A stretch of DNA of 64,000 nt, taken from positions 62,001 through 126,000 of the forward strand of contig JAFIET010000001.1 of NCBI GenBank assembly GCA_020832405.1, written 5' to 3'. How positions within the stretch are numbered: position 1 is the stretch's first letter; the number at the start of each line of letters is the position of its first letter. The stretch is from Balneolales bacterium (GTDB lineage: Bacteria; Bacteroidota; Rhodothermia; Balneolales; Cyclonatronaceae). Shown here one piece after another: positions 57,716-59,543 of the stretch. The notes below the pieces were generated by a model. The model had not been told where the DNA came from. It ran no database searches and was given only the letters and a program-made list of their open reading frames with translations. A program made the position numbers and the translations under genes.

Positions 57716-57860
57716 GGGGGATTTCCTGACGGACGCGGAAACCTTGCCCGGGCTGCTAATTTATGATTGTGTGACTGCCTTTTCCTTAGGCTCTAAGGCC
57801 TCTCTTAACACCTTGCTTTTCTAACCACCATTCGCGTATAAATTTACCCCGTTTTTTGGT

Positions 57861-57893
57861 GGATGATGTAATGCTCCACGCTGTTAAGTCCGT
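57861..57893. repeat. Left ~33-bp direct repeat bracketing the HTH-nucleotidyltransferase module
   Basis: It begins GGATGATGTAAT and ends GTTAAGTCCGT. It matches 59247-59279 in about 28 of 33 positions in the same orientation and overlaps the last codons of the nucleotidyltransferase frame. Both copies encode a similar LN-x-x-E-x-YII-x-Q peptide on the minus strand. Confidence 0.6.
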
Positions 57894-58590
57894 AAATGGC
57901 CATAAGACTGATGGAGTATTTGGTTGATTTTTTCTTCTAAAACCGGCAAACGTTCTGCTAACATCAGGGGATGAATGTGTGCTATTAAAACTTCCTGCAT
58001 CATGCCTTTACTGGCGATGTGTTGTAATTGCTCCCTGATAAAGGCAGCGATGCGGTGATCGTCTTTTTCTATTTCCTCAACTATTCCAAGCCGATTATCT
58101 AATACACAGATGATGTCTTCAATATCGTGGCTTGTGCGATAGTCGGAACCTCTGTTGTTAAAAGCCTCGAATTTGGTGGCTAAATAACAAGGTGCCGAAA
58201 GAATAGTAATGTGCTGATCTTTTGCTTTTGCCGTCCATAAATTTTCAAAACCTGTTTTATACCAACGGTTGGCAGGGCCTAACGGACCATCTTCGGTGGC
58301 TATAATATCTACCGGAATGTCTTTGTACTTGTAACTGCAAATGGCATGACCAAAGGGATCGGGATGAAAACGGAGTGCTCTCAATCTTTCTTGTACTTTT
58401 TCCCAGTGGCTGAGGCTGAGAATGTTTAAAGTGATATCAATATCCTGCGTAGGGCGAATTTCATCGGCTGCCGGATCATCGGTGTATAAACCCACCACTG
58501 CGCCCCCACAAATACCATTTGGTCTTTGATATCCCGCAGGGCTTCGGCCACTTCGGCTACTATGGCAATATTGATGGTTCTATTCTCCAA
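57884..58590 (-). pseudogene. AbiEii-like nucleotidyltransferase, broken by a one-base frameshift
   Basis: Read from a TTG at 58590 (MENRTINIAIVAEVAEAL, then LRDIKDQMVFVG), the frame runs to a G5 run (58503-58507); the remainder of the domain is in the next frame (VVGLYTDDPAADEIRPTQDIDI onward to 57884). One extra G would restore VFVGGAVVGLY. The DID and VDII residues are the nucleotidyltransferase triad. Homologues are toxins or defence proteins of the AbiEii/MNT class. The start overlaps the preceding HTH gene. It may be a decayed gene, a phase-variable locus or a sequencing error. Confidence 0.7.
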
Positions 58591-59104
58591 GTTCCAGGCG
58601 TTTTTTTAGTTCCTTCACTGCCAGCTCTCTTTCTCTGGCCCGGCCTACCCGCAAGGCATCTGCTAAAGCCAACAGTTCATGTAATTTTTCATCCTTCAAA
58701 GCTGCTTCAGGTATCGAAGGGTACAAAGGTGTTATGCCGTGCCCACGTACAGTTCCTTTGCCATAGGGCCAAACATACGCCTCTGTACTTTGTATTACAT
58801 CGCTTAGGGGTTTTGCAGAGTGCGAAGTAGGCATACCGCGTACCACGGCCCCCGGTTTAACGGGGAACACATACCTTAGCCCGTATTGCAAAAACTCAAG
58901 CAGTGCCATTTTCAACACCGTTTTGCCATTGTGAGCCAATAAGCCGGAATATTTACACCGGGCTACGGCTTCGCTCACTTCCGACTGGCTCAAACCCAGG
59001 GCCTCTGCTACCGGTTTTTGATTCCATGCAGGGTTATTATCGCTTACAATTTTAAGTAAGAGACAGACATCCTGCGGTTTCAGTTGCTGATTTTGTGATT
59101 TCAT
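58580..59104 (-). CDS. HTH-containing partner/antitoxin-like protein of the nucleotidyltransferase
   Basis: 174 residues from the ATG at 59104 (MKSQNQQLKPQDVCLLLK). The N-terminal winged helix (PVAEALGLSQSEVSEAVARCKYSGLL, residues about 30-60) is MarR-like; the C-terminal part has PTSHSAKPLSDVI, AYVWPYGKGTVRGHGITPLYPSIPEAAL and a basic helix. I recall this protein beside nucleotidyltransferases, an AbiEi/AbiEii-like arrangement. It should bind the two 28-bp operators upstream and regulate its own operon. A later ATG is not needed because the leader runs up to the operator. Confidence 0.7.
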   Translation of the reverse strand: MKSQNQQLKPQDVCLLLKIVSDNNPAWNQKPVAEALGLSQSEVSEAVARCKYSGLLAHNGKTVLKMALLEFLQYGLRYVFPVKPGAVVRGMPTSHSAKPLSDVIQSTEAYVWPYGKGTVRGHGITPLYPSIPEAALKDEKLHELLALADALRVGRARERELAVKELKKRLELGE

Positions 59105-59110
59105 ATCGAT

Positions 59111-59138
59111 TATATTGCGTATCGCGATTTGCAATATT
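59111..59138. promoter_or_regulatory. 28-bp operator copy 1, proximal to the HTH gene
   Basis: Outer dyad TATTGC/GCAATA encloses GTATCGCGATTT. Its left end is seven bases upstream of the HTH start codon. It is similar to the reverse complement of the 59177-59204 site at about 20 of 28 positions. Confidence 0.6.
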
Positions 59139-59176
59139 ACGAAATAAACCGGCCCCGGGAAACAGCTGTGCCGGAA

Positions 59177-59204
59177 AATATCGTGGATTACGATAGGCGA
59201 TATT
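59177..59204. promoter_or_regulatory. 28-bp operator copy 2, distal
   Basis: AATATCG at one end and CGATATT at the other enclose a TGGATTACGATAGG core. In inverted orientation it resembles the 59111 site; centre-to-centre spacing is 66 bases. Together they suggest cooperative autoregulation. Confidence 0.6.
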
Positions 59205-59246
59205 TTCTGCTCGCAAATTGGCAATCATACCCATAACTCAGCTGTT

Positions 59247-59279
59247 GGATGATGTAATACTCCGCCCTATTAAGTTCGT
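59247..59279. repeat. Right ~33-bp direct repeat
   Basis: GGATGATGTAAT at one end and ATTAAGTTCGT at the other; the partner of 57861-57893. Confidence 0.6.
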
Positions 59280-59507
59280 TGAATACAATAACTAAAAGAT
59301 TTGATTGATCAGCGATTTCTGGAGGGATTGGTAGCTTTCCATTACTGAAGCCATATTATCTGCGTTTGAGGGGAAAATTTTCATTGCATTAATCAACTCC
59401 ATTCTCATCGTTTAAAAACCCTGATCTGATAATCTCCAATAACCTTATAACTGACTCCGGGCATTTTTGTACGGATAGTTACCACTTGAACAGCACGAGT
59501 CGGGAGG
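59280..59507 (-). other. Gene-poor stretch with two tiny overlapping frames
   Basis: AT-rich compared with the flanks. On the minus strand a 26-codon frame (59485 to 59405, ending YQIRVFKR) overlaps by ATGA a 38-codon frame (59408 to 59292, with MKIFPSNADNMASVM). I recognise neither; they could be small genes or remnants of a larger gene lost with the insertion. Together with 59105-59279 this fills the gap between the HTH gene and the amidohydrolase. Confidence 0.3.
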
Positions 59508-59543
59508 AAAAACAACCTATGGGCAACCCCATAGGTTGTTTTT
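59508..59543. terminator. Strong terminator of the amidohydrolase gene
   Basis: AAAAACAACCTATGGG (59508-59523) and CCCATAGGTTGTTTTT (59528-59543) make a perfect 16-bp stem with a four-base loop and A/T runs in both directions. Confidence 0.9.

What the first reader, a model, noticed from the sequence alone, without database searches (positions are those of the whole stretch)
59105..59210. Two matching 28-bp operators in opposite orientation ahead of the HTH-nucleotidyltransferase pair
59111-59138 and the reverse complement of 59177-59204 share the pattern ATAT(T/C)GC-TATCG-(G/C)-ATATT. They are 66 bases apart and one abuts the start codon. This is expected for cooperative negative autoregulation by the HTH protein, as known for AbiEi, and supports calling the pair a toxin-antitoxin-like unit.
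Basis: partly seen in the sequence, partly recalled or inferred. Interest (0 to 1): 0.6.

Follow-up and report, generated by a model that had tools for sequence, protein, structure and literature searches.

The report
Paired self-repression switch for toxin-antitoxin-like genes
Two matching mirror-symmetric DNA sites in front of a DNA-binding protein gene are real, are shared with distant relatives at an almost fixed distance, and most likely let that protein switch off its own toxin-antitoxin-like gene pair, although in this genome the partner gene reads as broken.

Summary
Both sites (59111-59138, 59177-59204) are themselves 28-bp dyads (11/14 and 9/14 pairs), so their orientation is undefined. 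They are the only matches to their motif in the 3.96-Mb genome, and a matrix built from distant relatives ranks them first and second in the 64-kb window. Of 69 homologous loci examined, 19 Bacteroidota loci (50-94% protein identity) carry both sites. Centre-to-centre spacing is 64-66 bp in 18 and 76 bp (one helical turn more) in one. The proximal site covers the -7 element of a conserved Bacteroidota promoter (TTG-N20-TAnTATTG; the -33 part is degenerate here). Homologs elsewhere carry one dyad of a related but different sequence. Best reading: autorepression by the wHTH protein, two complexes on the same face of the helix. The pair is PADLOC candidate PDC-M21: an AbiEii-like nucleotidyltransferase with a partner that is not AbiEi by sequence or predicted fold. 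In the window the nucleotidyltransferase has a one-base frameshift, and the 1.7-kb AT-rich island carries hsdS/hsdR scraps, a relic of relatives where the pair sits between hsdS and hsdR. DNA binding, cooperativity and toxin/antitoxin function remain inferred.

The parts
59111..59138 (-). Proximal operator O1: 28-bp dyad AATATTGCAAATCGCGATACGCAATATA, centred 20 bp upstream of the ATG; overlaps the -7 promoter element
   Evidence: 11/14 dyad; conserved in 19 double-site Bacteroidota loci; top matrix score in the window
59177..59204 (-). Distal operator O2: 28-bp dyad AATATCGCCTATCGTAATCCACGATATT, centred 86 bp upstream of the ATG, 66 bp from O1
   Evidence: 9/14 dyad; second-best matrix score in the window; conserved spacing 64-66 bp in 18 of 19 loci, 76 bp in one
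59132..59139 (-). Predicted -7 element TAATATTG of a Bacteroidota-type promoter, at the edge of O1; the -33 element expected at 59160-59162 reads TTT here instead of TTG
   Evidence: TTG exactly 20 nt upstream of the -7 element in 15 of 22 relatives; consensus TAnnTTTG/TTTG from PMC7366714
58580..59104 (-). Winged-HTH protein, 174 aa, candidate autorepressor/antitoxin (PADLOC PDC-M21A)
   Evidence: E=1.7e-46; weak MarR_2 only; model pLDDT 92.7; 50 synonymous vs 11 nonsynonymous codon differences to L002
57884..58590 (-). AbiEii-like nucleotidyltransferase (PADLOC PDC-M21B), candidate toxin; start overlaps the HTH stop codon; interrupted by a one-base frameshift in the C-run (+ strand) at 58503-58507, inside the VGG motif
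   Evidence: E=1.1e-38; intact relatives pass PF08843 cut-off
59230..59286 (-). Relic of the 5' end of hsdR (VFNELNRAEYYIIQQLSYG), upstream of the operators
   Evidence: matches the HsdR N-terminus (MAFNELNSVEHYIIHQL) of L003
59292..59408 (-). Relic of the 3' end of hsdS (...YQSLQKSLINQIF*)
   Evidence: blastp E=1e-7 and 8e-6 to the C-termini of HsdS of L089 and L071 (two-sequence search)
57856..57904 (-). Second relic of the hsdR 5' end, just after the nucleotidyltransferase
   Evidence: 88% identical to L003 4436-4484; 84% over 37 bp to the upstream relic
57735..59540 (.). AT-rich acquired island (38-50% GC against about 60% around it) holding all of the above
   Evidence: same-genus genome G108 has the two flanking genes with 406 bp between them and no island

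Best explanation
The two sites are the operators of a self-repressing two-gene unit. The winged-HTH protein (PDC-M21A) binds the 28-bp dyad AATATTGCATATCGCGATATGCAATATT. At the proximal site it covers the -7 element and transcription start region and blocks RNA polymerase. A second complex binds the distal site just upstream of the -33 element, on the same face of the helix (65 bp is about 6.2 turns), and probably stabilises repression by contact between the two complexes. The repressed operon encodes the HTH protein and an AbiEii-like nucleotidyltransferase, most likely its toxin or effector partner, and in some relatives a downstream hsdR. Shown by sequence: sites, dyads, uniqueness, spacing, overlap with the predicted promoter, gene order. 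Inferred: the HTH protein as ligand, repression, cooperativity, toxin-antitoxin function. In this genome the operators and repressor gene look intact, but the nucleotidyltransferase reads as frameshifted.
For: Nineteen double-site loci, 18 of them at 64-66 bp and one at 76 bp; eight of these come from an independent search tested with a matrix trained beforehand. Proximal and distal dyads average 11.1 and 10.6 of 14 pairs, against 4.7 for the stretch midway between. Only these two matches in the genome, which argues for a self-encoded ligand rather than a global regulator. -7 overlap and TTG-N20 in 15 of 22 loci. Homologs in other phyla keep a dyad before the same gene but of a different sequence. 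HTH protein with a confident winged-helix model and MarR/DtxR-like weak matches. Purifying selection on the HTH gene.
Against: No binding data. Several relatives have a single site (L017, L045, L058, L072), so the pair is not essential. The window's -33 element is degenerate, and its distal dyad is weak by symmetry alone. The nucleotidyltransferase of the window is frameshifted, so selection for regulating it may have gone.
Confidence: 0.82

Rival explanations
1. Dual switch: the protein at the distal site (about 61 bp upstream of the inferred start, a classic class I activator position) activates, and at the proximal site represses, giving a concentration-dependent homeostatic switch like controller proteins of restriction-modification systems.
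For: Position of the distal site relative to the conserved -33/-7 elements; the one exceptional spacing is longer by 11 bp, one helical turn; some relatives place hsdR directly downstream.
Against: Single-site relatives keep only the proximal, promoter-overlapping site; the distal site is usually not the better one; transcription start is inferred from consensus only.
Confidence: 0.15
2. The operators bind the protein but the pair is not a toxin-antitoxin unit: the nucleotidyltransferase is a non-toxic effector or a restriction-associated modifier and the HTH protein only a regulator.
For: PDC-M21 is an untested candidate system; no toxicity data were found in the papers searched.
Against: Same family and catalytic motifs as AbiEii/MenT toxins; gene order regulator-first with overlapping genes is typical of toxin-antitoxin operons (general knowledge).
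Confidence: 0.3
3. The sites are recombination sites (dif-like, 28 bp) or RNA hairpins rather than operators.
For: Length of 28 bp and dyad symmetry; the island is horizontally acquired.
Against: Both lie on one side of the gene at fixed spacing, none at the other end; the distal one lies upstream of the predicted start so it would not be transcribed; the two share sequence, not just pairing.
Confidence: 0.02

Closest known systems
AbiE type IV toxin-antitoxin system (AbiEi/AbiEii; S. agalactiae, Rv2827c/Rv2826c)
   Same: Regulator-first operon; nucleotidyltransferase of the AbiEii/DUF1814 family; regulator sites overlapping the promoter; negative autoregulation expected (PMC7319586)
   Different: HTH partner matches no AbiEi family or fold; 28-bp full dyads 65-66 bp apart instead of 23-bp repeats 3 bp apart
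MenAT systems of M. tuberculosis
   Same: AbiEii-like nucleotidyltransferases (fold matches to MenT3) paired with diverse antitoxins (PMC11375011 abstract)
   Different: Partner here is a different winged-HTH family; activity untested
PADLOC candidate PDC-M21
   Same: Both proteins match (E=1.7e-46, 1.1e-38)
   Different: The window's second gene is frameshifted; no operator or regulation has been described for PDC-M21 in the papers found
RptR (regulator of type I restriction-modification islands, E. coli)
   Same: Repressor with several sites in its promoter; toxin-antitoxin genes lying between hsdS and hsdR (PMC12255303)
   Different: RptR is a 9-kDa single-domain protein at the head of the island binding TAGCTA repeats; here 174 aa, 28-bp dyads, regulator inside the operon and only sometimes with hsd genes
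Controller (C) proteins of type II restriction-modification systems
   Same: Small HTH regulator with two operators, in some relatives upstream of the restriction gene
   Different: Different family; C-protein operators lie close together (general knowledge); activation not shown here

Membership tests
PDC-M21 (PADLOC candidate defence system) | Adjacent genes matching PDC-M21A and PDC-M21B | tested here: met
   E=1.7e-46 and 1.1e-38, overlapping genes on the - strand
PDC-M21 (PADLOC candidate defence system) | Both genes intact | tested here: not met
   one-base frameshift in the nucleotidyltransferase; sequencing error not excluded
AbiE type IV toxin-antitoxin | AbiEii-family (PF08843) nucleotidyltransferase with GG...DxD and K/D motifs | tested here: met
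   L003 25.7 and L005 31.5 bits against cut-off 22.5; window fragment 20.7, just below; motifs
AbiE type IV toxin-antitoxin | AbiEi-family (COG5340) two-domain antitoxin | tested here: not met
   no AbiEi model at E<=1; no AbiEi or Rv2827c structure by profile or among the 50 best fold matches
AbiE type IV toxin-antitoxin | Two 23-bp inverted repeats 3 bp apart in the promoter | tested here: not met
   against PMC7319586
AbiE type IV toxin-antitoxin | Toxin arrests growth, antitoxin rescues | not testable with these tools
   needs expression tests
Autoregulated HTH operon with paired operators | Sites unique to the promoter, conserved in homologs with constant spacing | tested here: met
Autoregulated HTH operon with paired operators | The encoded protein binds the sites and represses | not testable with these tools
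   needs gel shift, footprint, reporter
RptR family | 9-kDa four-helix protein and TAGCTA repeats in the promoter | tested here: not met
   174-aa protein, different motif; RptR features from PMC12255303

The most novel reading that the evidence does not exclude
The HTH protein is a phased two-operator switch for a mobile defence module that, when lodged between hsdS and hsdR, places the restriction subunit under its own activation/repression control, a type I counterpart of controller proteins that also guards a nucleotidyltransferase toxin.
Probability: 0.12. Interest if true: 0.65.

Novelty: new variant of a known kind. Interest (0 to 1): 0.45.

Why it matters
It gives an uncharacterised candidate defence family (PDC-M21) a concrete, testable regulatory circuit: a defined operator, a nearly fixed 65-bp spacing with helical phase, and a promoter overlap shared across Bacteroidota. 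It also shows an AbiEii-type nucleotidyltransferase paired with a regulator unlike AbiEi, and a second, unrelated case (besides RptR-DarTG2) of a toxin-antitoxin-like module sitting between hsdS and hsdR.

Tried and rejected
Dyad statistics on the window alone: too weak for the distal site. A matrix-free scan for the preferred spacing over all 64 loci: 65 bp ranked first but only modestly, because single-site loci and edge effects dilute it. Integron-cassette idea for the flanking direct repeats: rejected, they are hsdR 5' ends. The repeat finder found nothing at its thresholds. Close relatives on viral contigs and phage records: none. No paper mentions PDC-M21. Fold search of the HTH protein gave no match below E=0.001, so its C-terminal domain has no recognised solved relative.

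Full report
Observation. The genes lie on the - strand. Each is itself an inverted repeat: 11 of 14 pairs for 59111-59138 and 9 of 14 for 59177-59204. They are therefore 19/28 identical in either orientation, and 'opposite orientation' is not a property of the sites. Their centres are 66 bp apart (gap 38 bp), and the nearer one ends 6 bp before the ATG at 59104. Symmetry alone is unconvincing for the distal site. A matrix built only from relatives below 79% identity, however, ranks exactly these two places first and second in the 64-kb window (30.9 and 20.6 bits, next -1.8; shuffles never exceeded 13.6). A consensus pattern with up to three mismatches finds nothing else in the 3.96-Mb genome.

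The genes. The 174-aa HTH protein matches PADLOC candidate PDC-M21A, and the nucleotidyltransferase matches PDC-M21B. Pfam gives the HTH protein only weak MarR-like matches. Intact relatives of the nucleotidyltransferase pass the cut-off of PF08843, AbiEii, keep the GG...DxD and K/D motifs, and resemble MenT toxins by profile and fold. The HTH model is confident (pLDDT 92.7) but has no fold match below E=0.001, and no AbiEi structure is among its 50 best matches. It is therefore not an AbiEi by the tests available, although the partner belongs to the AbiEii family.

Conservation. Homologs were taken from species genomes, a phylum sample, a class sample and plasmids; 69 loci with the HTH gene were compared, 55 with a recognisable nucleotidyltransferase beside it. 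Nineteen Bacteroidota loci carry both sites, at 65 bp (13 loci), 66 (4), 64 (1) and 76 (1) centre to centre. Eight of them came from a later search and were scored with a matrix fixed beforehand. The one outlier is longer by 11 bp, one turn of DNA. Both sites average about 11 of 14 dyad pairs, against 4.7 for the stretch midway between. Four loci with the same motif have only the proximal site (L017, L045, L058, L072). Homologs in cyanobacteria, gammaproteobacteria and another Bacteroidota subgroup carry one dyad of the TTCGCGAA type at the same place. The label 'both sites' is clustered on the protein tree, with some losses or gains (there L072, L074 and L078 had been put under 'single' by default before their sites were measured, and L074 in fact has both).

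Promoter. In 15 of 22 loci a TTG ends exactly 20 bases before a TAnTATTG that forms the edge of the proximal site. This fits the published Bacteroidota consensus TTTG / TAnnTTTG (PMC7366714). The proximal site thus covers the -7 element, and the distal site lies just upstream of the -33 element, centred near -61 if the start is where the consensus implies. In the window the -7 element is kept (TAATATTG, 59139-59132) but the -33 triplet reads TTT.

Mechanism. The simplest explanation is autorepression by the HTH protein: a block at the proximal site, helped by a second complex 65 bp away on the same face of the helix. Shown: sites, symmetry, uniqueness, spacing, promoter overlap and gene order. 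Inferred: the ligand, repression, cooperation between the sites, and toxin-antitoxin function. A dual activator/repressor switch is the main rival because of the position of the distal site.

Context and decay. The unit lies in an AT-rich island that is absent from the same place in a same-genus genome, where the flanking genes are 406 bp apart. The island also holds the 3' end of hsdS (59292-59408) and two copies of the 5' end of hsdR (59230-59286, 57856-57904). In L071 and L089 the pair sits between hsdS and hsdR of a complete type I restriction-modification operon. In L086 and L003 hsdR follows the pair; in L003 an extra hsdR 5' scrap precedes it. Most loci have no hsd genes nearby, so the association is occasional. 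The genome's other HsdR-like proteins are only 28-40% identical to the L003 HsdR, so the cognate one appears lost. The nucleotidyltransferase of the window is shifted by one base in a G/C run at 58503-58507, within its first catalytic motif. The codon changes after the shift look like those between intact relatives (39:29 against 32:26 synonymous:nonsynonymous), so the shift is recent or a sequencing error. The HTH gene itself is under purifying selection (50:11).

Comparison with known systems. AbiEi of S. agalactiae binds two 23-bp repeats 3 bp apart, and Rv2827c binds four (PMC7319586); the arrangement here is different. RptR represses type I islands in E. coli, one with DarTG2 between hsdS and hsdR (PMC12255303); this is a parallel in layout but not the same family or site. 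PDC systems are unpublished PADLOC candidates, most of them unvalidated (PMC12988326, PMC11811056).

Verdict.

Noticed in passing
window 58503-58507: One-base frameshift in the nucleotidyltransferase inside its first catalytic motif; intact in relatives L002-L005 and L071. Recent decay or sequencing error.
   Followed up: partly
window 59230-59408 and 57856-57904: Scraps of hsdS 3' end and two copies of the hsdR 5' end flank the pair; relic of a type I restriction-modification operon.
   Followed up: yes
L071 9038-13888, L089 2184-12888, L086, L003: HTH-nucleotidyltransferase pair placed directly before hsdR, in L071 and L089 between hsdS and hsdR of a full operon.
   Followed up: partly
L003 239-2811 and 4200-4440: OLD-like TOPRIM ATPase and helicase genes (Gabija-like) just before the pair, and tandem repeats of the hsdR 5' region after it: nested defence genes with repeated insertion at one spot.
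   Followed up: no
window 59512-59539: Near-perfect 28-bp hairpin (12/14) followed by T-runs on both sides: likely bidirectional terminator of the neighbouring amidohydrolase gene.
   Followed up: no
proteins of alignment A3, residues about 75-174: C-terminal domain of the HTH protein is highly conserved (VWP, GxPT, PLY motifs) but has no recognisable solved structural relative.
   Followed up: partly
L089 upstream region (about 48 and 106 bp before the start codon): Carries one site of each motif type (AATATTCCATATCGAGATACGCGATATA and CAATTCGCGAATCGCGAATTGAGAATTA), a possible intermediate between subfamilies.
   Followed up: no
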